From contig JAKZAN010000007.1 of NCBI GenBank assembly GCA_023053545.1, positions 4,154,001 through 4,218,000 on the forward strand: a stretch of 64,000 nt of DNA, given 5' to 3'. Source of the DNA: Lepidurus packardi. Taxonomy: Eukaryota; Arthropoda; Branchiopoda; Notostraca; Triopsidae. Position 1 is the stretch's first letter. Every line of letters begins with the position of its first letter. The notes under the pieces were generated by a model, which searched no databases, was not told the DNA's origin, and was given only the letters and a program-made list of their open reading frames with translations. The translations under genes were made by a program, and so were the position numbers. Of this stretch, positions 636 to 45,700 are shown piece by piece.

Positions 636-1259
636 CAGTAGATGCCGCTTATCACTGGTAATTAGAATCGGCCGCTTTATGGAATCAAATTTTACAGAAC
701 CGATTCAAAATGATCATTTATAGCATTTTAATCGGTTATTAGAATCACACTTTCGGATATTAGGCTCAATTTCGAAAGAATTCTTCACAGTGCAGTAACG
801 AAATTACGATAGTGATTGCTACATAGGCTTTGCATATTGACCAATAACATTGCTTGTACGTCGTTTTGACCAATCGTCATTTCCGGCCTACTACTATGCT
901 TAGGGATAAATTCCTTCTAAATTCCCCAGTCAATGAAATGAGCAAGTTATTCAATTGAATGACCCGTTCCTTTAACTGACCGGTAAAATTAGAGGGATAT
1001 CGAGTTGACAAACCCTACCTAAGCGTAGGAGTAGGCTTCAAAGGCGCAGTGTTCGTTATGTTTTAAACGTGTAGTTTACAAAAATGGCGACAAACAAGAA
1101 AATAGTTGATTCAAGTGTAAAAGAAAAGCTGCGGCTTATTGAAACTTATGACAAGTCTATAGCTACTGTACATATTTCCGATATCCGGTCATTAGAATCT
1201 CCGCTAAATGGAACCAATATTCTCTTGACAAACGTGATCACAATAAGCGACACCTACTG
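636..1259 (+). mobile_element. pogo/Tigger-like element, copy A (internally deleted)
   Basis: The element starts CAGTAGATGCCGCTTATC and ends with the imperfect inverse AATAAGCGACACCTACTG, flanked on both sides by TA, as expected for the Tc1/mariner-pogo group. A short reading frame from 1084 begins MATNKK and continues VKEKLRLIETYDK, which resembles the N-terminal CENP-B/Tigger helix-turn-helix. It then jumps straight into terminal sequence. Relative to the copy at 16802 about 230 bp are missing, so no transposase could be made. It is dead, non-autonomous debris of one family with two further copies in this window. Confidence 0.75.
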
Positions 1260-3687
1260 TATTTAAAACACACAACAATCCAGGGGAAATCCGTTTTGTT
1301 AGCTTCAATCTCATTCAATCTTGTTTCCAAGTCTTTTTTTATCGAGGTAAAATAAAAAAAATGTCATGGGAAATGCAGAGCATTCCGGGGTTAACTTTTT
1401 TGTAATTCTTGGCAGCATACTGGCAAAAGTATATAGGAAAGTAAAGCCCCTTAGCCTAGCTTCTTTCCGGAGAACCCCGCACGTTTCTCGGAAGTCCTAT
1501 AATGAAGTTGAGGAGACAAACGTCTACGTTATCTCCGCTGCAAGAGATGCTTCTTACTTTAGCCAAAGCTTTGCGTGGATGCCGTGGACATCTTGACAAC
1601 TCCCCCAGTAAGCGCTAAACAGCATCTCTTCAAAAATCCCCGACAGACCGCTAATAACGCCGACCATTAACTTCGGCTTAAAAAGGGACCGACACGAAAA
1701 TATAGTGATGTATAAAAAGATGGGCTCCTAAAAGCCGCAAGGATCTAAAAACGATTTGGGGAGTAGTTGTAAACGTAAACGTTACCGGGAAGGGGGCGTG
1801 ACGAAGGAAAATTAACGGTTAGGAGAAACTTAAATGCAGATAATTCTTCAATTGAAGTCTGAAATGGGAGTAGACAGATCCTGCGTCCTGCAACACAATG
1901 AGAGGAAGAGCGCGACTGCAAATCTATGTTCGCCTAAGCCGATCTTTACTTTTTGTGCTCTTTCGGACGGGGGGTCCCCAACATTGTTCTGAATGACAGA
2001 AAACAAATGAGAGGCGCCAAACGTTAGGTATTCTACTACCTACGTCGTTCCATTCGCTCATGCCATCGTCGAGGCGTAGGCGGCTTTCAATCAATAACAT
2101 TCATTACGCCCCAAACTATTGTCTTGCAAAGTCTGAGCTGGCGTGTTCAAGAGCCAAGATCAACGAGAATGTACAAATTCAAGACCCGAGTACTCTCGTT
2201 TACGGGAGGCTAAAGGCAAAAAAAGCAACACTCCTAAAAAAAAAAAAGAAAAACCTAATCAACGCAACTAAGCCGAAAACGAAAACAGCCTAGCAAGGGT
2301 TTCTTCTCTACCTGTTTTATTTAATTAAACTAACCCAATAAAAGTGCACCTAGTTTTAACAGTTAAGGCTCTGTTGCAAAATGAAAAGAAAAAATACCCA
2401 AGGTGACGAGAATCCACGTCCGAGATTACAGCACCAACACCGCAATTAGCGCCCGAACAAGAGAACGCAAATCACACCCAACCTATTTTTACATCAATTA
2501 CCTAGCATTCTGGGTCTGCCGTGAGGATCCTTGGTTTTTACTGTAATGAGCCGCGAAAAACTCTTCGTCACGCAAAAATTTCCAAAAGAAGTAAAATAAA
2601 CATAGTTGCTTTGCTCAAATCATCGTTTTCTTCCATCACACTCAGTTTTCTTTGCACCAAGCAATTTTCTTCCCAACCCAAATAACACGTAGAGATAAGA
2701 GGGCCATTCACCTGTCGTCACCTGCTTTTGCTGCTATGACCACAATAAACATATGTTCCCTTTTTGAGTCATACAAGTATTGTACCTTCGGTCTCGCCGG
2801 TTTCTCTTTCGCTCTTCCTGTTCCTTTTGCTCTGTCGTGTCGCTTGCACAGATTTTCGTTCTGTGTCCCAGTTTCTACGGCTGTGCCTAAGAATCGGTTG
2901 TTTGCCGGCACGCCCATGATTTCCTCTAGAAATCTGCGAGTTCTGGAAACTACCAAGTGCGTCAGTAAGAGCAAGACGTCGACGTCACTAATAAACTTAC
3001 ATGTTTTTTTTTTGCTTTGCTTTCCTCGCGTATCAGTAAGCTTTTGGTATTGATTCATACTCATAGCTGACCCTAGAGGATAAGACTCATTCGGGCCCCA
3101 TGACGCCCCCCACTACCGCTGCCAAATGAAGAGCTGTGACTGTTCGGTTCGATATATAGAGCTCTCTGAATAAGAGATAAGAGGGTGCCCAGATTGCAGT
3201 AAAAAAGCGAATTGCTTGCACACATGTCACAAGCTACATTCCCACCATCGGGCTTGGCATATTTACGCGAGAGCAGATACAAACAAATCAGGTGGCGTAA
3301 ACGTAAACGACATGCGTTAGCCCCTGCTTGCAAAAATAAATTCCTGGCTGTTAATGGCTAATTCGGAAGTAGTGAGTCTTTCCTGAGGCTATTTACACTC
3401 CTCCAAAGGGGGACAGTGAGGTACCGTACCACATCATTGACCGTAATGACATGGTTTAATTTATGTATGGGCATGTACATTAGTATGGGCAGAAAAGTCT
3501 TGGCTTTGGGAATCTTGCGATTCTTTTTTTTTACTCTAAGGAGTACATACGTATATAAAGGCAATGTAATAGTCTGTTAGCTGCTTGTCTAAATAAGGAT
3601 ATAATGTAAGACCTATTCAAGGGAGAAAACGTGTGAACGTTCCGTGGGAGCAAACGTGAAACGCCGTAAGCAAGGTGAAATCCTTAC
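1260..3687. other. non-coding region, no gene seen
   Basis: Several frames of 60-130 codons exist on both strands, but none shows a recognisable domain, and overlapping frames on opposite strands are about equally open, which suggests chance. The motif GTAAACGTAAACG occurs near 1769 and 3297. No RNA gene was recognised. Confidence 0.4.
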
Positions 3688-3860
3688 CTTGATTCCGTCC
3701 AAGGTAGGCTGCTGCAAGAAAATAACTCGGGTGAATGTAGAGATTCGTAGCTAAAATCGACAGGGCTTAAGTCTTCAAAAAATCCTGGCATCCAAAGTCC
3801 AGCCATGGAAAAGAGTTTGTTTGGTTCTGAGGTAGGTGTAGCAAAAATCGGATGTCCCAT
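3688..3860 (-). CDS. possible first coding exon of an unknown minus-strand gene
   Basis: On the minus strand an ATG at 3860 opens 57 codons (MGHPIF...LPWTES) ending at AG followed by GTAAGG, a strong donor in phase 2. A TATATAAG motif lies on the same strand about 35 nt upstream of the ATG (about 3892-3899). Splicing to an AG near 3617 would add SYIISLFRQ and a short tail ending in TAG, giving a protein of about 84 residues. The peptide matches no family I know. TATA box, start and donor in order are suggestive, but such combinations arise by chance in 64 kb. It could also be an internal exon of a gene extending off the left edge. Confidence 0.25.
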
Positions 3861-3899
3861 TAATCCATAAAAACTCACAGTATTTTAAGACACTTATAT

Positions 3900-4955
3900 A
3901 AAGGCCACAGTTGCGCAAGCTGCAAGTTTAAATTAGGCTGCCAAACAGGAGAGGAAATACACACATCTGAAAGAAATTAAGAGCATCGGTTTCCGAAATA
4001 TTAATTTTTCTTTGCATAAGAAGTAAGCAAAATATAGCTATTACAACGTTCGCTCATTTGAATATTGGCACGGGCATTCGTTAAATCTGTAGACTGAGTG
4101 GTGAGCTGTCCTGATTTTCATATTTATCTCTATTGGCGCATTGTGCAAGATTCTAGATAAGAAAGCCATGGATAACAACAAAGTGCTTAAAAAATTTACC
4201 AGATACTACAGGTTCCCGCCTTTTGGCTTTTGCACTTGGACTGCGAATCAAGGCGGATTATGGAATGTTCGGTTCCAAAAATAGTTATCACAACGTCAAC
4301 ATGTCCAGGAATAAGAGGTGGAAGCTCAGATTTGTCCTTGTACTATTCTACTATATTTCCTGATTTGATTAATCCACAGTTTTCATTTCACTCCATGCGT
4401 TAATCATACACAGCTGCTTTCACTTTAATAGAGTTAACATAAGTCAGTGAGCTACCTTGTTGACGGCAAGAACGTTTCTGTAAACTGGTTTCCCAACCTG
4501 TTGCCCTACGCCATGCTGCTGCCATGTTCCAACGTTCTTTACTAGTTTGACGAAGCTAGGATTATCAAAGTTCGTTGAAAATACGATGCACAGTCTAACG
4601 TCAGCAAAACGCTTTGCGCGCCACACGGCGCTGACAATATTTGAAAGTTTTGGCGCGCTAAAAGACTCGGCTTTTCCATTTCTTACGCATAGTTCTGATG
4701 AACATCAAGAGCGAATATAACAAGGGCATATATAAATAGGCAAATATCCGAAGGGTGTATTCCCATTCTCACTGAGAACCGAAGACTTGCGAAGAAAATA
4801 CTCACACAACAATTCTTGGACAACAAGACCACGTCACTCCAAAACCGAGTCAATTTGCAACCACAGTAGTCAACAAGAAACCGATACCAAGAAAGAAGAT
4901 TATGTCAAGTTATACACCTGTTATCATGTGACCTATGCCAGACATATCTAATAGC
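3900..4955. other. intergenic stretch downstream of the minus-strand SR gene
   Basis: This holds the 3' untranslated region and flank of the SR gene that ends at 4956. A TATA-like GCATATATAAATAGG lies on the plus strand near 4727 and an E2F-like TTTTGGCGCGCTAAAA near 4648, but no reading frame worth calling follows either. Confidence 0.4.
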
Positions 4956-6094
4956 TTAACCGCGGTCACTTGGAGTATGGCTGCGACTACGAGATCGACG
5001 AGTATCACGGCCGGGACGACGACTGTAGAAAGCATGTTTTCTATTTCTCTTAGTTGTCGATTTAATCAAATTACCTGTCTTTGAATGTAGATCGCACATC
5101 TCTGCGAGGAGAACGACTGCGTGATCGTCGTGCAGGTCCAGACCTAACCAGAACACCAATCTTATTAATAGCCGATTAACGAACAAAATATTTCCTGTCT
5201 TGACCAAAGAGAAAGAAAAAATAAAATAATAGAACCGCATACTTAAAAACCCCAGAACTTAGAATCCCTTGCTTAGCTTTACTCTCGTCTAGTTCATTTT
5301 AGGTATACCGTGCTTTGATGACCAGCAACGGGATTTAGGCAAGAGAAGTTCCTCTCGCAATGTGGTCTGCTGACAGTGCTGGTGTGTAGCCTTATGCTGG
5401 CATTTTTTTGAGCAAGAAGCTTATTTGAAGGAGTAGCTCAATGCTGAAGGATTGTTGGACATGGAGATGAGAAACAGATGATGTGGAGGGATGAAAGTGG
5501 ATGTCGCGGAGACCCTGGAATTTTGGGCATCTGTGTTAATTCGAGTCAAACTGACCAGAAAAGGTGAAAAAAAATCAACAGAAAAGGCCAAATATACGCG
5601 CGGATGCCTTGCCGTTAATACCTTAATCAGAAGACAATGGTGGGAGAAAATATACACAAAACGGACATGTAAAGCAAGTCAATAACACATACCGTCCTCC
5701 ATTTGAATCATTGCGGCCTTTATACGGTTCATAACGCGGGGAACGGCGGTTTCCATCTCCTTTACCACCATCTTGACGCTTTCGACCGGTCGACATTTGC
5801 ACACGAATTTTGTTCCCGCAAAATCGTCTAAGCAAAAACATGTTACTTGAAAAGTTCGAACTGGTCGTAAATGAGGCCTGCTTACGTTCCATCAAGTTCT
5901 TTTACAGCATCTTCTGCGTCACGTGGATCTTCAAATTCAACAAAGGCAAAGCCAGGAGGATTTCTAGCAATCCAAACGTTCTTCAAATTGCCATATTTGC
6001 TGAAAAGTCCCTCCAAATCTCCCCGAGCAGTTTCTGATTCCAAGTTACCAATGTATACTTTGCATTCCAAATCCCATTCACGGTGGCGTGACAT
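4956..6094 (-). CDS. SRSF3: SR splicing factor, SRSF3/Rbp1 type (copy a)
   Basis: Coding exons on the minus strand are 6094-5886, 5827-5693, 5143-5075 and 5022-4956; all phases agree and give 159 residues (human SRSF3 has 164). An RRM covers about residues 11-82, with RNP2 as VYIGNL (13-18) and RNP1 as GFAFVEFE (48-55), preceded by the family signature REWDL. A short basic linker and a modest RS tail (SRSRS blocks, ending HTPSDRG) follow. No zinc knuckle is present, so it is SRSF3/Rbp1-like rather than SRSF7-like. SR proteins of this type bind exonic enhancers and help recruit spliceosome components and export factors in the nucleus. The introns are 58, 549 and 52 nt; the long one lies between the RRM and RS exons. 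It is divergent from a close paralogue at 6841. Confidence 0.95.
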
Positions 6095-9039: not shown

Positions 9040-12000
9040 CTAATGACGAGCACGATGGATGTCTCTATCATCTCGTCTCCCACGATCTGAACGATCTCGA
9101 GGTTCTCTGCTGTCTCTGTCACGTTCTCGCACTTCCCTTTCCCTGGGTTCGATGGCGGGCTCGCGTCGCTCACGGTGATCTCTTTCCCTTTCACGATCGC
9201 GTTCCAAGACACGCTCGCGGTCTTTCTCTCTGTAACGGTCATCGTAGTATCTTTCGTCCCGCGGTTCCCGACTACGTTCACGGTAATCACGTTCACGGTC
9301 CCGATTACGATCCCGTTCGGTTTCACGCTCCCTTTCGCGGTCCCGATCACGATCGCGTTCTCTATCGTGGCTTCTCGATCTCTCCCTACTCGGATGTTAC
9401 AAGATTATTGTTGGTAACTTAACCAAATTGACCTAAAATAACCAAATAAGACATGCGAAAACACACCTTGGACGCTCAGCACTGCGACCTCGATAGTCTC
9501 TCTCGAAACGCGTATCGCGTTCACGTTCGCGTTTCCTATCGCGATCCAAATCGCGTTCTGCACTCCGCGAACGATGGCGCCTAGACGACCCATGCCTGGA
9601 CTCTCGATCCCGTGACCGAGACCGTCCACTGCCTACAAATGACGTCAAATAGGTTAGAAAGGAACCAGAAATTTAACAAAAATCGTAAGTATATACTTCG
9701 CTTAGCAGAATAACCTTTTGCTTCAATGCCATGGAGCGTATCTTCCAGGGATCCTACCAAGACTTTGCAACGTTCGTCACGAGCGACTTTGGACTGCTTG
9801 ATGAGTGAAATGGCGGTGACCAATGTTTCAATCGCACTGGAGTAATCACCGGTGGCAGCATCGGTTACCGCACGAGTAATTGCAGAACTGGATACGGTGC
9901 GGTTTCGTGACATGGTTTCTTCAAATTCAACTTCAGATAAAGCAGGCCCATCGTGGCGCATATCAGGGGGGAACTGTTCAAACTGTTCAGTAATATAAAT
10001 TACTAATGTTGCTACAGGTCAATTAAAAAGATTAAATACATTATTTGGAGGCGGAAATCCAGGTGGCCCTTGATGTGGAGGTCCTTGATTAGGCGGGAAA
10101 AATGCAGGATTAACATGCGGCGCAGGAGGCGGACCTAATCAAAATTTGGTCATTTAGTTGCCAAGTAACGCCCTTTTCCCCACCCCAACCTATACAAGTG
10201 CATTATCTTTTTCCTTCTCAATAAATGCGGCAGCCAAGAGCAAATGGTCACTCTGTGTAAAATATATGTACAGTAGATGCCGCTTATTGTGATCACGTTT
10301 GTCAATTGGAAATTGATTCTATTACGCGGAGATTCTAACCGAAAATCGGTATATGCAATAGAATGCTAAGATTAATCGGCATGTGAAACGAACTGACTTG
10401 TTTAAACCAAAGAAACAAAGCATTGTCTACTTTTTGACACTTTCCCACACGTTTGCTTTTTCTAGATTCACTACACTCGCTATTCGTTATTTCGAAACGA
10501 TTTTTCAACCGTTTTGGTAGAGATGATTAAGCAATTCCTAACGTAAGGATCTCTTCTCTTCGTGGCAAACCTTTTAAATTTACTTTGCCATAGGTTTCAG
10601 TGAGCCACAACTTCTTTTACATTTAAATCATCTCTTTTCTTGTTCGTCGCCATTTTTATATAACCACACGTCTAACACAGGGCCCTTGAAGCCTTTCCTA
10701 CGCTTAGGCAGGGTTCTCAACACGATATCCTTTCTAATTTTACCGGTCAGTTAAAGGAACTGGTCATTCAATTGAATAACCTGCTCATTTAATTGACTGC
10801 GGAGCTTAGAAGGGATTTCTTCCTAAGCGTAGTAGTAGGCTGGAAATGATATGAATGGTCAAAATGACGTGAAGTATGTTATTGGTCAATATTCGAAGTC
10901 CATGTAGCAACAACTACTGTAGTTTCTTTTCTGTAAATGTGGAGATTCTTTTGAAATTGATTTCATATCCGAAGGTGTGATCCTAATAACCGATTAAAAT
11001 GCTATGACTTTTATCATTTTGAATCTGTCCTTTAAAAATTGATTCCATAAAGCGGTTAATTCTAATAACCAATGATCACAACAAGCGGTATCTACTGTAT
11101 ATAAAAAAAAAAAAATCCGTTTTCTTTTACTAACCCCTGGGAGGCATGCCTGGAGGACCATGATGTGGAATTCCATGATGAGGAAAGCCTAGCAACCGAA
11201 TACATAATTAGTATTGTTCATACTGCAAGATACGACAGATTTAAAAATCCAACCGAATCTTGCTTTACATACCAGGAGGGCGATTCCAATCTGGGCGTGG
11301 TGGTGGGCCACGTGCATCCATATGAGGTCCTCGCATATTCTAGTTAAGTGAGTATACATTATTACTTTTTGTATTTATTTTTTTCTTTTATTTATTATTA
11401 ACATTATTTATTTATTATTTTTATTATATATTCACTACTTATTATATACTAGTATTATATCATATTATTTAACTAGCCGCTATCAACGGGAAGTGGGAAT
11501 TTACCATGCCCGGAGGCGGTCCGCGCGGCCCCGAGAATTGTGGTGGCATTCCCATTCCATAGGGGTCCTGAAATCCAGGGGGCGGTCCCTGATGTCCTTG
11601 TGGACCATGGGGACGGTTTCCTCCGCCTTGCATACCCATAGGTGGCAGGCCAAGACGATCTGGCCCTCCAGGTAACAGCATACGAGGAGGTGGTCCACCC
11701 ATGCTACCAGCAGCCACAAGGGGTGGTCCTGCAAATCCTGGCGATGGTCCACCAGATAAACTAAGCGGAGGGGGCCGGCTACCAGGGCTGGGTGCTCGAG
11801 GTGGGCGTGTCTTGGCTTGTGACTCGAACTAAAAATACGTTTAGAAAATTAAACCAACCTTTAAAGACTTCCTGCTATTGTATATTACAATATATTCTTT
11901 ATTTTTTTTTACCTGATTCAGAGCTTGCTTGCTAGTATAGGTAACTGCAGGTTGCTGCCCATGGATCTCCTTTTTAGGCAACCGATCAATGAGCATTCGT

Positions 12001-14365: not shown

Positions 14366-17300
14366 TTAGGACTTGAAAAAAAGCCAGTAGGACAGGAATT
14401 GGAAAAGAGACATACATCCTATGGCGAAGACCATATCTTGTACATTTATCCGCGTTTCTTGCAATCGACAATTCATGGCGACAGTTTCCAACAGATGATG
14501 AATCCGACCCAGCTTCTCTTGTGTTTCCTTTTGCGTCGCTTCCAGCTGTCGCACTATGCTCAGAACACTAGGACGAAATTACCGTTCAGAGTGTTTGGAG
14601 AATGACAACAAACAAAACTAGAGCTTTACCTGACTTTATCGCTTTTATCCTGCTTTCTCGCAGTTTCTTGGTCAGAAACTTCGCTGTGGGGAGCTTCTCC
14701 ATCAGCTGATGAGGAAGCACTTCCTTGTTTAACTTTGCTCTTATTTCCCATTCCGTTGATATTGATAGCCTTTGACGCTCGGCCTGCAGCTCGGCCCAAT
14801 AATCGCGCTCGAAATTCCCGGGCACCCCCTTCTCCTCCTTTACCACCTCGCTCGGAATGCTCCACACTAACAATACTCGCAGCTCGGATCATAGGTGTCC
14901 GGTGCATAGTTTTGTTAGCGATTACAAAGTTGGCCTCGTACTGATGCAAGTCATTCCGGGGATCCCATGGCCGCATGTCTGCATGACGGTAAGTCCAACA
15001 ACCCGTAATGATGTCTTGCTCAAAACAACGCGGCGTCCAGGTCAACCCTTGTAACTTGTGTTCTTTGGCTGCTGTTCGCTGTGCTTCTTCCAACAAGGTT
15101 TTTTCTTCCGTGGCAGCTTCCTGGGAAATATGACAACAGTGAATTGCATGAAAACAAAAGAATGGAGAACTTGAAGTTAACGGAATTTTGCTTATTACTT
15201 GATTATCTTGGCGAATAGCTTGCGTTACATGCTGCCAGAGCCTCTCGGACTCAAACTCGTCTTGTTCCGTCTGTGGGACTACCATTCTCTTAAGTCGACG
15301 AGCTCGAGTCTCTGGAGTAGAATTCCACAGAACGTGTTCTTCACCGGTACGTTTGTCTTGAATATAAATGGCTCCATCCCAATGCCCCGAAAGGGTCGCC
15401 AATGTTTCTTTGCCCAACCGTAACTTTCCGGATACGTAATTGGTCAGTTCACTTTTCCCTCCCAGTAAAGGCTGTATGTTTACCAACCCCAGGAGAAGAT
15501 AAAAAATAGCTTTTAGTGTAACTCAGTTTGCTGATAAATCGAAAAAATACAAAAAAATGGAAGTGGGCCTCACCTTCAACTTGAATTCTAAATCGGCTCT
15601 ATAGCCAGTCTTTTCACATTCAATCGAGACTTCGCCGCCCAGCTCCATAGTCAGAGCGCCATAAAGAATGCCTTTGCAGTGGGCGTAAGGCATATTCAAG
15701 AGGTAATCTTCACCTCGTGGCAACAACGTAAGACGTGCTGAGCCTTCTAATAAAGCCGACAAAGAATTGCCTGCAAAAAAACATACAGAGAAACAGAATT
15801 AATCCATCACACTCTTTTATTTATCATTGTTAGCCAAGAAAAAATGCGGCAAAAAAGGAAAGGAAAAGTGGGAGTTACCGTAGTATTTGGATTTGGCCAG
15901 AATGGACGCCGACAATGTAAAACCCTCTTGTCTGTTTGTCACGTAAAAGGCCGAAACGGGTGGATGGTGTGAAACCTAATAAATTACAGATAAAAAATGG
16001 TAAGAAAAACATTAATCCTTCGCAGACAAAAACACAATAAAAAAATCGTCCATTGTCTTCCAAATAGGACTTCTTCTTTATAGAAAACAAAAAATCAATG
16101 CTAACTAGTTTGGAACGGGAACATTACTTGCTCTGCGATGTAGAAAGTTCGTGATCCCGAAGGATGCTTCCAACAGCACCGGAACACTTCGCCCAAAATT
16201 GGATTGTATGGTTTTTTTAAACCTTTGGGCTTTTTATAGAAGCCAGACAGGTACCACTGCACTACCGTTTTCATCCGCGTAAAAGGGTCATCTTCTTGCA
16301 CTGCCCTATACATATAACACCGGGCAAGAGATCATCAGTCTTCTATACTTGCCAAATCTTTCTTTCTTTTTCTAAAAAAAATTGTATCGTGCTTTCAACT
16401 ATTAAAACCTAAACTGGCTTCAAAAACTTTCTAATTTTTCAAAGTTAATATTTCCTGTGTCAAAATAAAGTTAAATGAATCAAACTTAAGCAAAAGTCTC
16501 TTAACAAACAAGTCTATAAATTAATATGGCATTGGTTATCATCCAGTTACTATGTCGAATTTACGATTTTCACTATCCCCATGGTAACCAGCGAAGAATT
16601 TGCTAACAGATAAGGGTTAGGTCGAAAAAAGATCGAAAGATGTAGTTGAAACTTCCTGCTGACGATAAATGCTCTAATTTGAAATGTATGAGGATGAATC
16701 AAAAAAATCCGCGGAAATGACGGGAAAAAATAAGCATAAAGCGGAAATCCGGTTTCAAAACAACAATATATCCCGCAGATTGAATGGGATTCCTTCATAT
16801 ACAGTAGATGCCGCTTGTTGTGATCACTGGTTGTTAGAATCAGCAGCCTTACGGAATGAAATTTTCGAGGACCGATTCAAAATGATGAAATTCATAGCAT
16901 TTTAATCGGTTATTAAAATCACACCTTCGGATATTACATCAATTTTAACAGAATCTTCACGTGTTACAATAATGAAACTATAGTAGTGCTTGCTACATGG
17001 ACTTTTCATCTTATCCCATGACATTGCTTTCACGTCGTTTTGACCAATTCTGTCATTTCTAGCCTACTAATACTAAGTTTAGGGGGAAACCAATACCTTC
17101 TAAACTCCCCAGTTCATTAAGTGAGCAGGTTATGCAAGTTAATGAACAGTTCCTTTAATTGACAGGGGAAATTAGAAGGGATATCGTGATGAGAACTCTA
17201 CCTAAGCGTAGGAGTAGACTTCAAAGGCACAGGGTCAGTTGTGTTTTAGACGTGTGGCTATATAAAAATGGCGACGAACAATACAAGCGTTGATTTAAAT

Positions 17301-20300
17301 GTAAAAGAGAAGCTGCGGCTCATTGAAACTTATGACAAGTTAAACTTAAAAGATTTGCCAGGTAGAAAAGCGGCTGTTAAGTTATTAATTCTTCAATCAT
17401 CTCTAACAAAATTGTTGAAAAATTTTTACGATATAAACAATCGTTAGTGTAGTGAAAATAGAGAAAGAAAACGTGTGGGAAACTTTCAAAAAGTAGACGA
17501 TGCTTTGTTTCTTTGGTTTAAACAATCAAGTTCGCTTCACGCGCCGATTAATCGTAGTACTTGGTTGCATATTTCCGATTTCGGTTATTAGAATCCCCGC
17601 TTAAAAGAATCAATATTCACTTGACAAACGTGACCTCAATAAGCAGCATCTTCTGTAATAGGAAAACTAGTTAATGAAAAAAGAAGAAGACGCTTTGCTT
17701 CCGTCATTTTTAAGGCTATTTTAACCATTTCATGTTCTTTAAACCCAGATTTCCCTTCGAACTTGCTCTTTTTTGTCCCTTTTTTCTATATTATACTTTA
17801 GCACGGTACCGAAAGAAATCTAAGCGAGTTTAAAGACGGGGAGCTTACTTGGACAGGATATCGGCGTGGTAGTGGTAATCGGACAGTTTATCCAAAAAGG
17901 ATCTGGGTTCTAAGATAAAAGTTGGAAGAACCACCCTTGACAAATCCATACCGGGTCTTAATTGCTTCACCAAATACCAGATGAGGGAGCGATTATCATC
18001 AGCAATTTCCTCGGTCTGTTCGCCAGCCTGTTTGAAACCAAAATGTACACGAAAAAAATCGCTTCAGAAAAAATACGAAGGATGTTGGCATTGTTCACGC
18101 TTTATCTCTTTCTCAAAACAAAAACATTGCCCACCCAGGAGTAGAGACTGACAAAAACGATTTACCGAGCCAAATTCCTCTTCGTCTTGTTCCTGGTAAT
18201 TCGTTTCCACAACAGTATTAGAGATTGTCTGCTGAAGAGTACGGACTGTTTCTCCCGTTTCTTCTTCCGATTCTGATTCCGTGACAGGTGCAACTCGCTG
18301 ACTTCGCAAACTGCTGTCCGGATCCTGATCACCTTTGCCGTCCGTAACGTCATTTTCGTCGGTGTGACTCGCGTCGTCCAAATCTATCAGGAAAAAGGGT
18401 CCGACGAATGGAAAACAAACAGAAGAGACGCAAAATACACATCAAGCCAGCTTCCCAAGCAGATTTACAACGGCCAACAACTACGTCACACGTCCAATAC
18501 GCGTTAAACCTTACACAATATTGATTTTCAACGGAAAAAAGGAATCGAAAATTGAAGGAAGCTATGCAAAGCGTTTTCATGTCAGAGTTGGTATTAACCC
18601 GACGCTATAAGCCATACAAGCAACTACATATATGTACCAATGCGAGGACATTTTAGTCCTGACGGCATCTGGAAAGGCGGAATTGGTGATTGCCGCTCTA
18701 ACATGGCTAATGCATGGCTGATCTTTTGGAAAAACGGAGTAGGTGAAGGGCAAAGCGACGAAGCTGGACTGACATGCGATCGTTGGCAAGCACGTGGATG
18801 CAAATGTTGATGCTCTTCCACTGGGGAATCCGACAAATCTAACCCCATCGTAAAAGACAAGGTCCCCGAAACCCAGCAGAAACAAGGCAGCCATACGTTT
18901 TTTTTCAACCACCGCAAGATGAAGACATAGTATGGCATTGTTCGAATTTACAGGGGTTTTAAATTAAACAAAAAATATGTTACAAAAAAAAATATGTTAT
19001 AAAGGACACCCGGAGGAGGGACAAAAGAGAAAGAGAGAAAAGATGATGGCATTCCGTGAGTTGCAAATTCAACTAGAATATTGGTGTGATCAATAAGTGG
19101 CACATCTCAGATAAATGAGGAAAAAGTAAAAAATACGCGAACGAGAATAGAACTCGAGATTTCTCTCTTACCATGATCCTTGAAATGTTTTTCGCAATCC
19201 GACTCATTCCAATGTAAATCCGACGCGGTGCTCACGTCATGGGCGTGGCTTAAGTTCAAAATGCCTCCCAAGACTGAAGAGTCGGCGGACTTCTGGCTCA
19301 TACTACGCATCAGTAACGAAGAGCATTTCACAGCCAGCTCCAGTGCGTCCATCCAACATTTCCCGGCCGCTTGGGACGGGGCCCGAAAGATGAGATGAGA
19401 CGTGGGTAGGGGTTGTACTACCGCGGCTGCCCCATCACAACAAAACCCAAGCACAGGAATTGGGATGGGGAAAGAGTAAAAATTTTATATTTTTAAAATG
19501 AAAAATTTCTGAAAATGATTAAAATCTCAGACACCGAGTCTCTTAAAGGGGGAGTAAGGTCTGAAAAAATATAGATTAAAGGTATGGCAACGAGCCCAGC
19601 CACGCCGTTTAAAATAAAAAGAAATAAAAGTAAAAAAAAATCCTTTGAAGAACTGAGTAAGGTTTAAAAATGAAAAAATATATGTTTTAGAACAGATCGA
19701 TGTGTTCTGGCTGCAGAACCCCTCTGTCAGTTATGCATATTTAACCGGGTAGTTACTTATTTAGCGAAATAAGCTTCAAATTTTCTTATCCTTATAACAC
19801 TGGGGGATAGCGCCTTTACCTATGAGCGCATCCAAAATCGATTCCTGGACTCATAGGATGACACCATTGTCTTTCTTTTGAATGCCCAAACTAGTCTGCA
19901 GGTACTTTGCTTAATTTACAAGCTAAATAAAACAAAAAGATAAAAAATTATTCGCGCCGTTACTTGCGGGCTCCGCTGTACCATGCAGCAGCAAGCGTTA
20001 CCCGCATAGTCGGACCCGCCTCGTGCGGTCCCATTGCTGGGGGACAGGCTCTCGGTTGTGAAGCCGACCCGAAACTTGCCCAAGGGCTCTCACGGCCGGG
20101 TCTCGGCCCGGCAGGACGGCGATGGCGCGAAGAAAAGGTTACTTTGTTATGATTCAGTTTTTAAATTAACCAGAGCACCTACGGACTTGTTGGTTCACAC
20201 ATAAATTAATATGTACAATTTTAGATTAATATGCATAACTTGACTCACGGGTTCTTCAGCCAGAACTCTACATTTGTTCTGTTCTATGATATAATTTTTT

Positions 20301-23300
20301 CATTTGAAACCTTGCTCCCCCTTTAAAACAGTTGTGTAAATTATGACAGGATACGAAAACACACGTACGAATGGTCTCTCCTTCTGGTCCTTTTGGGGCC
20401 CATATGGATTGGTCCAGCGGATGAAAGAGTTTGAAGCAAAAGCCATCTTTCTTGGAAGGGCGCTCGATAAGTTTGCACGTGCTCAAGTGTATGGTTCCTA
20501 CCCAATAACTGCTCTGTGGACATAAGAAGAAAAAGAAACAGACATAAGCTAAAGAAGTTAAAAAAAAAAAAAATTTAAAAAAGGGATCTTGGTACCGTAT
20601 ATCTCTTACTATTACCATGTCCTACAAAAGTCATCTATACTTTCTTCTGCCATACCCTTTCCTGGTACTCAACTCTCCCTTTTATTCCAGTCACGGAAAA
20701 ATTGGTCTTCTTTTTGCTTTTTATCTTTTCTTTTTATTTCTTTTTCTCCTTTTTTTGCATTTCATTAAAAAAGACAGAAAAAGACAAAGAAAGAAGGTAC
20801 CTTAGCTTTGGGACTCTTGTAGAGCAGTACCAACCCAGGTTTAAGGATGCACCATAGCTTGGTCCAGCTCTTGAGTGTGCCTCGGACTTTGAGCCAATCT
20901 GCCAATACTATGACAGTAGGGTCTTTCAATGTTGACAACAATTCCTTGGCCACACGCTTCTTCTCGTAGCGGTAGTTTTTGCGTTGCATTTTATAGGACT
21001 CTTTCCGCGCTAAAGCCGAAGATACCACGCTCGAATCCCCGGCGGTGGGCGTGGCTCCTCCTGCAGCAGATACCGCGGTCGTTTCCCCGTTTGTCGATAC
21101 ACCCTATATTAAAGAAGACAACATGAAACATGAAATACATCAAGCAGCCAACCCAAGAACCTATAACGTTAGTGTCACAACAGGTTGCCTGTGTGTATCT
21201 CCTAATGCACTCCCATCACCGGAGTTGTGCTGTAGAATTCATGACTTTAGCCTCTTGATTTTCACTTAGGCTTGCTCACAGGGGTGGGTAACCTAATCGA
21301 CGGAATATTTTTCTTTGAACGACAAAATAAAGAAAAGCGTTATCCGATGGATCATGACAGCTATTACTTGTCTTTTTAACGCTCTGCAGCACCTCCGTAG
21401 ATCCATCAGAGTCTAATCTCGCGCAACTAATGCAACTGTAACTTCACGCTCTAGATTTCGGCTACCGCCGAAATCGTTTCTTTCATTTTGCTTTTTAATA
21501 TGGCAAGACACTGACAGCTTCACGGTCCCAAACCTGGGGGAAAAGTTCCTACTGCGATGAAAGGACACCTTTTGATGCATCCAACCTGCCTTCATTTTGG
21601 CGACAACGATTTCAAGTAAATAGACGGAACTTGACTAATTACCTACGACCAAATGGCCACGTTGGAAGTCAACACTTGGCGCATTGCAGGTCCTGGTTAA
21701 TTAAGTAAAGCTTTATCCCCTCAAAAAAAAAAAGCCGACCCGCGTTTGTTTATTAAACTGCATATTGTATGAAAGTAAAGTAACTCTCCGTGTCACTGCT
21801 GTGAACAGCCTTGAACCACAGGAAAACTTGAACTTTGGAAGGAACTAAGAACTTAGTGCAGCTGGATAGCAAAAAGTTGAGTCCAAGTTAAAACTTTCCA
21901 TCGATTTAGTTTTGCGTCTGAGACGTAATTATGTACAGTAGTGCAAAGGTCGCCAAAACCAGCCAAAACACTGCATATTCATTAAATTTACCGGAAGCGA
22001 CCGACGTCCGAAGGAGTGACATGAAAGGATTAGGTTTATTGGTGGATTGCCACACGCGTTTCTTCTTTCTCGCGTCGTGTCATTAACGTAACGAAGTTGT
22101 GCCTCCGGTGACAATATGACAGAAAAAAATAATAAAAAAACGCGGAACATGCAGCTCACTCCTTATATTCTTGTTACATAACCCTCGCCTTTGAACTTAT
22201 AAAGCACCAAAATGATCCAGTTGACGTTGAAGATTCTGGCGGGGCAATGTTACAGACTACACTACACACGCTCTGTTGATAAAGAAAAGAAAAAAAAAGC
22301 CCGGGATCGATGATGAGCTGGCAAGAGAATCGATACAACGCTTTGGTTAAATTGCGGGATGTAAGAGTTGGCCGGATAATGAGGGGGTTCCTTCGAGGCT
22401 CGCCGGAAGGAAGGGAATAAAGAAACGAACGATATTTTCCAGACTTATGATTTCCGCAGCCAATGGAAAAATGGGGAGAGGGTCAAAGAAGTGTGCAAGG
22501 GTCGTACACATAAATAATACGTCTTCCCTTAGTCCCGTACTGCCGCGCGTTATGATGAAGTTACAAAGGATCGATACTGTGCTACGAACTTGTCACCTAA
22601 ATACTCTTGAACTATATAACAGCCAGGAAGACTAAACACGATATATGACTCTGTATCCAATGCCCTCTGCCTAAGTTCTATTTACATCTATGTCACTTAA
22701 AAAACTGCAAATCCGGCTGTCGTATATCTATTTTTTTTTCATTTGATCTAGTAATACAAAACATAAGACACATGCGATCATATAAATAAATTTATAAAAC
22801 GACTTCTTGCATCTCGCTGCTTTTTTTTGCTATTATTACTTCGGGGATTCTGTTAAACCAAAGCGGGCGGGAATGTTCTTCTCCCATTCTGATGGATAAT
22901 GATTTGGACAAATAAGATTTAAGAGAAGCCGCTGGGGACGAGCTGCTATTGCTCATAAACACAGCTGTTGTTGTTAGCAATAAGTGGGCAGAAATACGTG
23001 AAAGACACTGTGCTGAAGGTAAAATTCCAGGCGGCTATTTAGTGCAGCGCTATCCAGGTTTGATACGGGGCGAAAATAACGCGACTTTTCAATTAGCGTT
23101 GACTAGAAATAAAAAAACGCGTGTACGTATAGCACGTTCATGTACACGAGCGAGTGTGTGTGGCCAAGCCTGGTGGCTTGGCGGAACTATTTTCGTGCCC
23201 TGTAACGACCGAGAGTTTGGCTTGCTAGTGGGGGGAAAGGGACGCAAAAGTACATGCGCGTATTTACTTGCCACGTTTTCCTGCAAGGCCGATGAAGAGT

Positions 23301-39700: not shown

Positions 39701-42700
39701 AGTATTTCCGTAACAGCAATAAGAGCAGCTGGTTTGTTCTCTGCACTTAGTTAAGCTCCAAGTGTAAGCAATTAAGCGTATCAAGCTTGTTGAATGGAAA
39801 TGGACTAAAAGTTTGCCCTATTTGGCGGCTATTTAAAGGGTTAACCTGTTCGTTTCGCGGTTTTTCTGTATCTTGGCCAAAGTATGTTTCTCATGAGGTG
39901 GATAGCGTGACCGATAACTTATCACCATTGTTATTAGAAATGGGAGAATTCAGTCGAGCTTAGTTTAAAGCATGGTAAGAACCTATAATAACCCGCCTCA
40001 GCGTTTTTCTAATAAAACGATAGCGTTATGGTCACAATTTTTTCTTCCCGGCCTTTCGGAACTCAAAGAAACGCCTATAGGTCGCACGCTTGGAGTGATT
40101 TATATTTTTTTTTTTTTTTTTTTTTTTTTACCTTTTGCCGAAATGATTATTACTTTATGTGGAACTTTTCTTTGCAAGAAAGCGTTTCGTATAGTGATCT
40201 CTGTCAGCTGTCTATGGGAGAGACTTCATTCAGGAGGCTAGGTGGAAAATTAAGCTCCATTTCACGCTTTTGCATTGAAATTATTCACGTTGCGCTTAAT
40301 CTCATTACCACGTTTTGGTGGTCCGATGGGCACTCTCCAGCTTGCTCTCCAGATGTTTCAAGTGGGATATTTAAAAAATTTTGCCGTTTTCCCCCCACAA
40401 AAGTTCTGCTCGTGAATGGACCAAGGATTATTCGTGAAGGTTTCTTGCCATTTATTATATTTATTACATTTCTTAAATTTTTTTTAGACTTTGTATTGTT
40501 GGTTGTATTCTACAGTATGCTAGTGTCTACTCCTTTGAATGAAGGACTACTCCCTTTTGGTTGCGGGGCCAAAAGATAACAGTAATAATATGGGTGCGAA
40601 CAGGAAAATGCTTTTAAAACTATATAGCTCTCGGGGAACACATGGCTTATGGCTGAAAATCTGTCGAATTTTCCTGAACTTTCCTCTATCGGGATTTTGT
40701 AAACAGTAAAAAGTTGTCGCTTGTCGTTAGACGAAAAAAAAAAAAAAGAACTACACACATAACGGAATTTATAGAGTCAGTTTAAAGGCAGACTTTTTTA
40801 TAGCCTCAGTATTTCAGTCGCATTGAATACTAAGGGAAAAAATAAGCAAAAAAGCAGGCTGGTGAATAAAGATAACTGGGGAGATATATCTGGGGAAAAT
40901 AGAAGGCATGGATTTTTTAAAAAAAAAATAAGGTAGCTTATAGGTAGCTATAGGCTTATGTTAGGCCTACGGTTATCCTTTTATGGGAAAATATAAGGTT
41001 TTTTTGGTTTTATGGAAAGTTTTTGTATGTGTTTGTGGTTATTTGAATGTGGTTGACGTCGTAGTGGTAGGCCAATATATTCTGACGTTTGCAATAACCC
41101 CCAGAGCTATAGTGTGATCCTTTTGTTGAGGACTGTTAGCTTGTTATACAGCTCCCCAGACTTGTTTGGCCTGTGTGCCCCATGTCAAGCCTCATGAAGC
41201 TTGACAACAGTGAAGTGATTGGAATTCTCGTTTTCAGCTATTGGTATCAAGCCGGACCATCTTTTAACAAGAATGGGAAAATAAGCGTATGGGAGGCTAT
41301 TTAGTGTCAATCCCAATTCCTGCGGTTGGGCTTTTCACGATACCATTAATGGTTTTAGGATTTTGGGGGCAAAAAGTGGCCAAAACTTCAATACATTTTC
41401 TCTTTTGTCGTTCAAGTGGCTGTTGCTACATTAGTGGAAAGATCAGTAAAATTTTGGCTTTTGGGTTGATATAAGACACTTTGTGGTTTGACGTTATTGG
41501 GCGGTTTTTAGGGAATATACAAGCAAAAGATCTTGCAGTTAGATTTGCCCTCTTCCCACAGTTTAACGCACCAAAAAAAACTTTTATATAAGGTAGTAGT
41601 CCATAGGCGCTGAGTAAAGCGGATGGGATCGTGGCTTTTTATCTGTATGGGTTTTATGGCCCAGGTTCACCTTTACTGATTACCATAATTACGACCCTCA
41701 TATTATCGAAGAGACTCACTTCTTGGTAGGTTTTCCAAAAAATATACAAAAAGACGGAGAATGAAGGTCTAAAGGTCCCTCTTTAAAAAAATACCCTGGA
41801 AACGTCAACCGTGGTAAGTTTGTGAAAAATTTTATCGGTCAAGGTAAAAAAAGTGTTCTTATCGTTATTGGTTATCACTTGCTATAAGGACCTTTTTGTA
41901 TTTAATTTTTTTTTTAAAGTCCTGAGATTGGTTTCTGGTTATCAGTGCCATTTCCTGCTATGCCACAAGAGAGGAAGTTGGTTGTGTTGAGATCCTTAAC
42001 CAAATAATTCCCTGCTGGAATTATGACACTGAATCTGGATAGTGGCGATGAAGTTGGCGAGTGACGAGAGAAAAAGATGAGGGCCTCTTTGGTTTGTATT
42101 AGACTTGGTATTATACCACCCAAGCTTTCCAGCCACGTGAAAGCGTTGTGTGGCTGCGAAATAGATCTCATCTCTATTACAACCCCGAAAAGCCGAGGCG
42201 GTTAACAAAGGGTGGATAAAGTTTCCCTTTCTATAGAACCTGTGTCCACAAGTTTCCTGTTTTGTGCTATGAATCATATATTGGGGAAAAAAAAGAAAGA
42301 AAAGCTTATCCACTTGACTGCCCCCGCGCCCAAACATCCCAAACATGGCTCATTATTGTATATGTGCCCTTTAGAAAACTTGGCCCAGTCATGTAACTTT
42401 CATAATTTTGTTTTTTTGCTTGTGTTTCCCGTTTGCCGTAGGTGTACCGTCTATTCCAGAATAAGCTGCAGAATCGAAGATTGGAAGTGAATGAAGGTGT
42501 TTGGAGTGAATGGATGCCCTGGACCCCTTGTTCGAGGTCATGCGGAGGCGGGATATCTTCACAGGAAAGACAATGCTTGAAGAGTCGACGACGGAGAAGG
42601 TATATATTTATATCTTTTACGCGACGAGATGATTCCCATGTAAAAAGATTTAACTTGTCAGTTAGGCTTATCAGTTAAGGAAAATTCTTAAAGGGGGAGT

Positions 42701-45700
42701 AAGGTACGAAAAAATAAAAAAATATGTTATAGAGGAGACCAAAATAAGTGTTCTGGCTGAAGAACCCCTATGTCAATTATGCATATTAACCGAGTAATTA
42801 ATTATTTAGCGGTTTAAGCTCCGCCCCTTTCCGCCAAATTTCAAATTTTCCTATCCTTATAACATTGGCGGACAGTTGGCCGGAGGCCTAGCGACTTTAC
42901 CTGTGAGCGCATTCAAAATCGATCCCAGATCTCATAGGGACCGTACCGTGACCTTTCTTTTGAATGCTTAAGCAGTTTTTTACGCGCTTTGGTTACTTCA
43001 CAAACTTAATCACAAAAAACCACTTTTTCTTCGCGCCACGACGGGAATGTTCCGTTCTGTGGCTCAACGAACGTCAACGCCGCGAGCGTGGAGCTCACAA
43101 CCTGTGTCAGGATAGCCTGCCGGACTAACCGAAGAATCCGAAGAATCGCTTGAAACACTATCGTTATCACTCATTTTAATTCAAAGCTTATGAAGACACA
43201 AACTAATAAACTAAACAAGCGAATAGTCAGCACGTATACAAGACCACGCTTTGGAATGTCGACTTTGGATAACACGCGTTCCAAGGCTTCTTAGCCTAGC
43301 TCTCCCCAATATGTTAGTCCGGCAGGCTATCCTGACACAGGTTGTGAGCTCCACGCTCGCGGCGTTGACGTTCGTTGAGCCACAGAACGGAACATTCCCG
43401 TCGTGGCGCGAAGAAAAAGTGGTTTTTTGTGATTAAGTTTGTGAAGTAACCAAAGCGCGTAAAAAACTGCTTAAGCATTCAAAAGAAAGGTCACGGTACG
43501 GTCCCTATGAGATCTGGGATCGATTTTGAATGCGCTCACAGGTAAAGTCGCTAGGCCTCCGGCCAACTGTCCGCCAATGTTATAAGGATAGGAAAATTTG
43601 AAATTTGGCGGAAAGGGGCGGAGCTTAAACCGCTAAATAATTAATTACTCGGTTAATATGCATAATTGACATAGGGGTTCTTCAGCCAGAACACTTATTT
43701 TGGTCTCCTCTATAACATATTTTTTTATTTTTTCGTACCTTACTCCCCCTTTAAAAGAAGCTAAATAAGAGACAAAATGGGCCGTACTTTTATAGTAGAT
43801 AACGCTTTTATCAGGTGCCATGGAGCAAAGGCAATTGATAGCTCATGTTCGGTAACTTGGGAGGCGATAGCCTATTTTCCAAAGACACGGCTACCGTAAC
43901 GATCCGGTCACTAGAGATTAGGCACAAGGAAGTATACCCCCCCCCCCCCCCCAAAGTCCGATACGTCCAATACCACGAAACACCAATACTACGGAAAAAA
44001 TTAGTGAAACCGATATTAAAAATGAAAATCAGCAGATAAAGTAGGTTTATACATCCCCATGCATTACTGTCACAATAGGATTTCATTATATTGCATAGCG
44101 AAGAAGAATTTTCGCACAAAATTTGCCATGCTATATCGCCATAAGGGGCTCCACTACACCCTGGCCTTAATGGGAGCGATACTGACAGCGTGCGTTGTGT
44201 GCGTTGTGGTGGCCGTTATGTAGGCAGGCCAATTGGCACTTGTTTCGTCAAGCATATAAGATAAAAAAGGGAAGGAGAACCCTTCAAAGTTTTTAAAGTA
44301 GCATTATGCAAATATTAATGCCAAAGCTCACGCCATTCAGGAGGCCACGCGAGAGAACTTTGTAGCTTGCTTTATAGTGCAGTCTGTCTGCTGCTTAACT
44401 TGCCTTTTAAATCAGGCGACATCACAGCTCCCCCCCCCCCCCCCCCAGAAACGAATAAAGACCAGGGAAAGGCGTGAAAGGAAGAGAGAGAGTGGAGAAG
44501 ACGACGAAAAAACAAAAGAGAAAAAAGACATGCTCCCAGGTGCTATGCTGATAACGTTGTCTTTTAACACGGACATACGCACTATATAACGCGAGATCGC
44601 ACGACAAGAACACGAGCTTTTATAGTTCGTCGCACCTTATAGGCTTCATGGGCCAGGAAGGCATAGGGTTGTGCATAAACTACGGGGGGTTTCGTTTGTT
44701 TTTAATTTTTTTTTCATAAGCCTCTCCTCTTTTTACCTTATCAGGGCAACACAATTTATGCCTCTTCCCTCAGCTCTGAATTGCATCTTACTACTTGACG
44801 ACCGGGGGGTCTTCGCCACTCCAACTCAGCAACTTGCAAGCGGAACTGTTACGAACTTAACGGAATTATTTGCTGCCGCTGTCTCGTCTGCCTCTCTAAG
44901 TACTTTATTGGCGTTGTTCCTCTGGGGTTAACCAAAGAGCAAGAGTTATACTTTGGACGCTTGATACTTGGGTACACCAAGACAGTATTTATAACCGTTA
45001 CTTCAGGGCCAACCACAAAAAAGCGACTTGTGATTCTTGTCGGGGAAATTAGGGGGGGGGGGGGGGGGGTGCTCAAGACAATAGTTACTAGGTAAGTCAC
45101 AGACTGCACAGGCTGGACTAACTGAGGAAGAAGAATGGGGCCATTAGGGGAAGCTTAGTGACACCCAAGTAACACCTTTTGAGAGGCCTTTTTCACCTGG
45201 GTGGGCTCCCTTTTGCTTGCTTTTGCAGCGCCATTCAAGTGCGTATTCCAAAAATGCTCACGTCCATTCGCATTCTAAAAGACGCGTTATTTAACTGTAT
45301 TATTCATTTCGCAAAAAAACACAATTTATTACCATGAATGACTCTTTGTATGTAGCGTCTTTTGACATTGTACACAGAATGCGTCAGTCATTTGAGACTC
45401 CTGTAAGGATTTTTTTTTTTGTGGGGAAAGTATAATGAGGGCCTTCTCACTACGGGTACAAGTACTGTACATTCTTTGAAAAAGTGAGAGATGTGTAGGT
45501 GGACGTATCAACTTAGCGTACGGGGACTCTTTGTTGACTTTATTTTTTATTTTTATTGCTTTCTTAGCTTACATTCTTATTAGAACCCTTTTTGTCTCTG
45601 ACTTACCCCCTTGGTGGCGGCCACCCAGTCCGTTTGACGTTGTATTGTTGTCGGTTAGGTTTGGGAGGACCCACTCTTGAAAGCTGTGCGGCAATTTAGG

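What the first reader, a model, noticed from the sequence alone, without database searches (positions are those of the whole stretch)
42688..43754. Apparently perfect 442-bp inverted arms in a TTAA-flanked foldback
Arms of this length with no visible mismatch around a 183-bp spacer are unusual: they would extrude a cruciform and yield long double-stranded RNA when the THSD4 intron is transcribed, so it could act as a source of hairpin siRNA. Related sequence in the ORP8 intron is single-armed, so the foldback arose by duplication of an end.
Basis: seen in the sequence. Interest (0 to 1): 0.7.

Follow-up and report, generated by a model that had tools for sequence, protein, structure and literature searches.

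The report
Young foldback transposon with swapped arms
The perfect 442-base inverted arms belong to a recently multiplied, gene-less jumping element that looks like the Kolobok type, and sister copies show that both of its arms were replaced by the arms of a related element while its core stayed the same.

Summary
Observation confirmed: 42688-43754 is 1,067 bp, with 442-bp arms that are 100% complementary, a 183-bp spacer and TTAA at both ends. It is not an assembly fold. The window's own genome holds 14 copies at different sites, 13 of them identical letter for letter. Joined flanks of two sister copies match host repeats that run through a single TTAA.

It is a non-autonomous Kolobok-type transposon. 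Full-length relatives (5.5-5.6 kb) have the same ends as 517-bp inverted repeats and encode a THAP domain (E 4.8e-9) plus an apparent DDE transposase (motifs read by eye). The arms are therefore the parent's ends left by an internal deletion, not a duplicated end. The ORP8-gene relative is two-ended, not single-armed.

New detail: the foldback is a chimera. Its core is identical to subfamily B, but both arms are subfamily A: 20 of 20 diagnostic sites in each arm. Three sister copies carry the same core with B arms. Of 28 A/B sites, 27 are mirrored at both ends, so the ends evolve in concert. Recent one-copy changes are mostly one-sided, so perfect arms chiefly mean youth. Hairpin siRNA is untested.

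The parts
42688..42691 (.). left TTAA target-site copy
   Evidence: TTAA at both ends of 14 of 14 A-armed copies and of 10 of 10 further oriented foldback copies
42688..43129 (+). left arm, identical to the first 442 bp of the subfamily A terminal inverted repeat
42692..42696 (+). terminal AGGGG, fits the 5'-RR end of Kolobok and the AGGRR end of T2-MITEs
   Evidence: sequence; end rules from PMC6004289 and PMC9587614
43130..43133 (+). four filler bases at the internal-deletion junction (left end joined to right end of a B element)
43130..43312 (+). 183-bp spacer; from 43134 on identical to the right side of subfamily B elements
43259..43306 (+). inner part of the right terminal repeat that carries B letters at 7 of 7 A/B sites
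   Evidence: window places computed from it
43313..43754 (-). right arm, A letters at 20 of 20 A/B sites; the A site nearest to the core is 43394
43751..43754 (.). right TTAA target-site copy
42442..42599 (+). host exon with a thrombospondin type 1 domain; donor GT at 42600, 88 bp before the element
   Evidence: PF00090 E 3.1e-5, above cut-off, for 42442-42600; splice sites read by eye
19543..20326 (.). older relative of the same family in the ORP8-like gene: 784 bp, TTAA at both ends, two degraded inverted ends

Best explanation
A non-autonomous Kolobok-superfamily DNA transposon (a long-armed, T2-MITE-like foldback). Steps shown by sequence: (1) full-length elements of two subfamilies, A and B, carry 517-bp near-perfect terminal inverted repeats; (2) an internal deletion in a B element left 442 bp of one end joined to 621 bp of the other; (3) in one descendant both 442-bp arms are A-type while the B core stayed; (4) this chimera multiplied recently into TTAA sites, one of them in an apparent intron here. 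Inferred steps: the transposase of full-length copies moves it in trans by cut and paste, and the arm exchange happened by homology-directed copying, either one arm taking A sequence and templating the other, or gap repair that switched template inside the long ends. The arms are perfect because the parent's ends were perfect and the copies are young.
For: 14 TTAA-bounded copies, 13 identical, one spacer change in 14. Joined flanks of L002 and L009 match host repeats through one TTAA: 40 of 41 rows for L002 (the match has only about 20 nt on the left side) and 40 of 40 for L009, with small indels; only 40 of 61 and 40 of 64 candidates were scored. Full-length elements of 5,584 bp (A) and 5,502 bp (B) with TIRs of 517 bp counting the target letters: 517/517 paired in L051, 516/517 in L052 and L059, 513/517 in L057. 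THAP domain E 4.8e-9, above Pfam's cut-off; 7 of the 114 THAP places in the genome lie in A or B elements (matched to places by me). Transposase ORFs carry DGQCDSPG, ATDRH, DVWH and HFCHTGELEV (motif roles partly recalled, the C/DxxH rule from PMC9587614). B-armed sisters L068-L070: 40 differences from the window copy, 20 in each arm, all mirrored, none in the spacer; L068 equals B over 442 + 621 bp without a mismatch. In the window copy A letters are at 20/20 left and 20/20 right arm sites and B letters at 7/7 sites just inside the right arm.
Against: The catalytic region reaches no Pfam cut-off (PF20700 Mutator-like, E 0.013-0.018, below cut-off; three pieces of diverged relatives also none, best MULE E 0.0078), and no named Kolobok protein could be compared, so superfamily membership rests on target site, termini, THAP and motifs. 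Transposition was not observed. The two candidate routes of the arm exchange cannot be told apart. THAP ORFs of A and B differ at only 2 of 76 residues, which speaks against a change of binding specificity as the reason for success. One full-length B copy, L057, lies between TTCA, not TTAA.
Confidence: 0.9

Rival explanations
1. piggyBac-type MITE (for example like Pokey/mPok of Daphnia), because of the TTAA target.
For: TTAA duplication; Pokey inserts at TTAA and has MITE derivatives (PMC4912750 passages).
Against: The transposase pieces gave no piggyBac transposase match in Pfam up to E 1. A THAP domain is present. Ends are AG...CT, the RR/YY end of Kolobok, which PMC9587614 gives as the difference from piggyBac. 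Pokey TIRs are 12-16 bp, here 517 bp.
Confidence: 0.03
2. One reading: an end was duplicated in inverted orientation to make a foldback from a one-armed element.
For: None found; the long perfect arms alone suggested it.
Against: Full-length elements already have 517-bp inverted ends; the B-armed sister is exactly left 442 + right 621 of a B element with 4 bases between.
Confidence: 0.02
3. The arms are kept perfect by strong continuing arm-to-arm conversion or by selection for a hairpin RNA (siRNA source), not by youth.
For: 27 of 28 A/B sites in the terminal repeats are mirrored; a 7-bp contraction is mirrored in both arms of L067; the RNA stem is 442 bp, MFE -900.8 kcal/mol.
Against: Other recent changes are one-sided: L067 site 333, L060/61/62/64 site 126, L063 near 923, L052 site 220, L059 site 511, L057 sites 134 and 346. 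The L067 contraction removes one unit of a 7-bp tandem repeat and the same junction occurs in two diverged relatives, so it may have arisen twice. Diverged relatives pair less: L072 86% over 207, L073 79% over 378, L074 97% over 35, L075 89% over 136, ORP8 copy 80% over 92.
Confidence: 0.15
4. Assembly or polishing artefact that folded or evened out the arms.
For: Perfect long inverted repeats are a known risk for assemblers (recalled).
Against: Same structure at 14 sites on five contigs with different flanks; one-sided arm differences survive in other copies; host repeats with a single TTAA exist.
Confidence: 0.02

Closest known systems
T2-MITE / Kolobok superfamily transposons (Xenopus; PMC6004289, passages read)
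   Same: TTAA target, AGGRR end of T2-MITEs, THAP-bearing DDE transposase in full-length copies, recent amplification of non-autonomous copies
   Different: The table seen there prints 16-letter ends and gives no TIR lengths; here the inverted repeats are 517 bp in full-length copies and pair over 424-495 bp in the four young deletion types read. Not compared by phylogeny.
KolobokP (PMC9587614: abstract, Background and passages read)
   Same: Kolobok superfamily with long terminal repeats (about 450 or 660 bp) and amplified solo forms
   Different: KolobokP repeats are direct with TIRs up to 18 bp and it encodes a His-Me nuclease; here the long repeats are inverted; a nuclease gene was not looked for.
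Galileo/Newton of Drosophila (P superfamily; PMC2775673, passages read)
   Same: Long TIRs (about 575 bp around a 350-bp middle), >99% alike within two copies but about 7% apart between them, and chimeric copies
   Different: Galileo has 7-bp target duplications; the chimeras seen there arose by ectopic recombination at inversion breakpoints and have unlike arms, whereas here both arms were exchanged and the core kept.
mPok MITEs of Pokey (piggyBac, Daphnia; PMC4912750, passages read)
   Same: TTAA target; two autonomous groups with matching MITEs
   Different: 12-16 bp TIRs, piggyBac superfamily

Membership tests
Kolobok superfamily | 4-bp TTAA target-site duplication | tested here: met
   14 of 14 A-armed copies and 10 of 10 further oriented foldbacks end in TTAA on both sides; matching host repeats have a single TTAA. 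Exception: full-length L057 has TTCA on both sides.
Kolobok superfamily | termini 5'-RR ... YY-3' (AGGRR in T2-MITE) | tested here: met
   AGGGGG...CCCCCT; rule from PMC6004289 and PMC9587614
Kolobok superfamily | THAP DNA-binding domain in the transposase (usual in the Xenopus paper) | tested here: met
   PF05485 E 4.8e-9, 37.3 bits against cut-off 23.9, in L051:1274-1504. That this exon belongs to the same protein is inferred.
Kolobok superfamily | DDE triad with C/DxxH between second D and E | tested here: inconclusive
   Candidate residues and DVWH read by eye in L051:2225-3451 and 3253-3951; no curated profile reached its cut-off
Kolobok superfamily | phylogenetic placement of the transposase among named Kolobok proteins | not testable with these tools
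   no named eukaryotic transposase collection on hand
piggyBac | piggyBac-type transposase | tested here: not met
   no piggyBac profile among Pfam matches up to E 1 of the transposase pieces
MITE / internal-deletion derivative | ends of an autonomous element, no transposase gene, internal deletion | tested here: met
   no ORF of 90 aa or more is listed inside 42688-43754
siRNA-producing hairpin locus | 21-22 nt reads from the arms | not testable with these tools
   no small-RNA data

The most novel reading that the evidence does not exclude
The long arms act as a matched pair that can be rewritten together: once one arm takes sequence from another subfamily, the hairpin or cruciform lets it template the other arm, so a non-autonomous foldback can replace both transposase-binding ends in a single burst-founding event. 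Eleven of the 20 exchanged sites lie in bases 19-61, next to the end, so the swap may have changed which transposase moves it best.
Probability: 0.25. Interest if true: 0.5.

Novelty: new member of a known kind. Interest (0 to 1): 0.3.

Why it matters
It turns a suspected odd hairpin into a clear, recent case of how long-ended DNA transposons evolve: step-by-step intermediates (full-length A and B, B-armed deletion, A-armed chimera) sit in one genome, so concerted evolution of the two ends and arm exchange can be tested directly. For annotation, it says that this family should be masked as a Kolobok-type foldback rather than read as a regulatory hairpin of the host gene.

Tried and rejected
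Rejected: assembly fold (14 sites), piggyBac/Pokey (no piggyBac profile match, THAP present, RR/YY ends), duplication of one end, single-armed ORP8-gene relative. Considered and weakened: that A arms won because A transposase reads different ends. Sites 19-61 differ more than 62-442 (11/43 against 9/381, Fisher P 2.8e-7), but the A and B THAP ORFs differ at only 2 of 76 residues. Considered and dropped: that B transposase is frame-shifted; the frame change after residue 328 lies where I think an intron is likely, so no breakage is claimed. The A/B comparison is mosaic (0 to 22 differences per 100-bp block), so no age of the split is given. Literature: Kolobok + foldback gave 2 papers, neither opened; Kolobok + long terminal inverted repeats 0 papers; Kolobok + gene conversion + inverted repeats 2 papers, of which PMC9587614 had been read in part and its gene-conversion passage was not looked at; a five-term search for foldback chimeras 0; a five-term search on abortive gap repair 0. 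These cover an open-licence library only, not Repbase, so nothing is claimed to be absent from print. The host species was not identified.

Full report
OBSERVATION. The foldback is real: arms 42688-43129 and 43313-43754, 442 nt, 100% complementary, 183 nt apart, the only perfect one of the 10 inverted pairs of 60 nt or more listed for the window. TTAA stands at both outer ends.

COPIES. The window is C6:4154001-4218000 of a 108.6-Mb assembly in 344 contigs. A search with the left arm (443 bases) scored 40 of 287 candidates, so counts are lower bounds. It gave 14 whole A-armed foldbacks (L001-L014) on five contigs, each with other flanks and TTAA on both sides. Thirteen are identical over 1,067 bp; L010 has one change, in the spacer. 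Further copies with the same spacer: L068-L070 (B arms), L067 (A arms with a 7-bp contraction in both arms and one one-sided change), and L065, whose left arm is missing. Other deletion types read: five copies of 1,104-1,105 bp (L060-L064), one of 1,064 bp (L066) and one of 868 bp (L071). The 17-base end TTAAAGGGGGAGTAAGG occurs 105 times in the genome, 0 times for the reversed control.

EMPTY SITES. The flanks of L002 and L009, joined with one TTAA, match host repeats. For L002, 41 rows were returned from 40 of 61 candidates; 40 run through the TTAA, most starting near query base 41, so only about 20 nt support the left side, and one short row (83-124) does not reach it. For L009, 40 of 40 rows from 40 of 64 candidates run through it, most over the whole 124 letters with indels of a few bases. 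This is what insertion with TTAA duplication predicts.

PARENTS. A: L051 and L052, 5,584 bp, one difference between them, and L053, cut by the contig end. B: L059 and L057, 5,502 bp, nine differences. Other B copies (L054/L055, L056, L058) are partial, deleted or interrupted. The terminal inverted repeats are 517 bp counting the target letters: 517/517 paired in L051, 516/517 in L052 and L059, 513/517 in L057, where two of the four mismatches come from its TTCA target copies. A and B are 90.0% alike over a 5,032-column alignment, unevenly so.

GENE CONTENT. L051 has a THAP exon (PF05485, E 4.8e-9) and, on the same strand, two ORFs with DGQCDSPG, ATDRH, DVWH and HFCHTGELEV. Of the 114 THAP places in the genome, 7 fall in A or B elements. 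[quoted passage not shown] that the other strings are Kolobok-like is recalled. The catalytic part reaches no Pfam cut-off (best PF20700, E 0.013-0.018), nor do three pieces of diverged relatives L077 and L078 (best MULE, E 0.0078). TTAA, RR/YY ends and THAP agree with Kolobok as described in PMC6004289 (passages) and PMC9587614 (abstract, Background, passages). I file it there with the reservation that no named Kolobok protein could be compared.

ORIGIN OF THE FOLDBACK. The B-armed sister L068 equals B 1-442 joined to B 4882-5502 without a mismatch, with four bases between. The 1,104-, 1,064- and 868-bp types are other deletions of B, keeping 495/599, 454/613 and 440/424 bp of the two ends. 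So the arms are inherited ends, not a duplicated end.

CHIMERA. A (L051) and B (L059) terminal repeats differ at 28 left and 27 right sites; 27 are shared and mirrored, one (511) is one-sided. The window copy has A letters at 20 of 20 sites in each arm and B letters at 7 of 7 sites of the right repeat just inside the arm, so the change lies between 43306 and 43394 (window places computed by me). L068-L070 against the window copy: 40 differences, 20 per arm, all mirrored, 0 in the 183-bp spacer (Fisher on 20/442 against 0/183, P 0.0017). Because L068 is an exact B product, I take the A-armed form as the derived one. No foldback with an A core was met among the copies read, with the spacer as query, scored 40 of 43 candidates.

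HOW THE ARMS STAY ALIKE. Over the A/B split the ends changed in concert. On the recent scale they do not keep up: one-sided changes are in L067 (333), L060/61/62/64 (126), L063 (near 923), L052 (220), L059 (511) and L057 (134, 346). The only mirrored recent change, in L067, is the loss of one unit of a 7-bp tandem repeat whose junction also occurs in two diverged relatives, L075 and L076. So perfect arms here mean perfect parent ends and youth.

HOST CONTEXT. The element lies 88 bp behind the donor of an exon with a thrombospondin type 1 domain. Further TSP1 exons on the same strand lie at C6:4232625-4234024, beyond the window. That they belong to one THSD4-like gene is inferred. An oxysterol-binding domain is encoded at 14626-15522 on the minus strand (E 4e-11), and a PH-like match below its cut-off at 20765-21103 (E 0.0014), in line with the ORP8 label. 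The relative between them, 19543-20326, has TTAA at both ends and inverted ends 88% alike over 24 nt and 80% over 92 nt.

FUNCTION. The transcript would fold as a 442-bp stem (MFE -900.8 kcal/mol; no shuffles at that length). That follows from the repeat and shows no use. I take the element as a passenger; siRNA remains open.

Noticed in passing
window 651-1261, 10269-11105, 16794-17657: Three diverged copies of another dispersed repeat; the first has 655 candidates in the genome, of which 40 were scored: itself and 39 others at 82-85% over about 500 bp.
   Followed up: partly
G000: 114 THAP-domain places, among them runs of equal-scoring copies (20 at 52.8 bits), which suggests other recently spread THAP transposons.
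   Followed up: no
L057 (C3:2837700-2843500): A full-length B element between two TTCA copies in the same direction: an apparent insertion at a target other than TTAA.
   Followed up: no
L071 (C2:3604700-3605610): 868-bp deletion form made of 440 and 424 bp of the B ends with only 4 bases between: nearly a pure palindrome.
   Followed up: partly
L051 and L052 flanks: Two A elements sit in repetitive DNA that matches itself in inverted orientation beyond the element ends.
   Followed up: no
L060, L066, L068, L071 against L074: The four young deletion types read keep 424 bp or more of both ends, while a diverged relative, L074, matches only 254 and 33 bp of them.
   Followed up: partly
A against B elements, 100-bp blocks: Divergence is mosaic: 0-3 per 100 from 601 to 1400 (THAP exon region), 1-5 from 3701 to 4400, up to 22 between, as if segments had been exchanged.
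   Followed up: no
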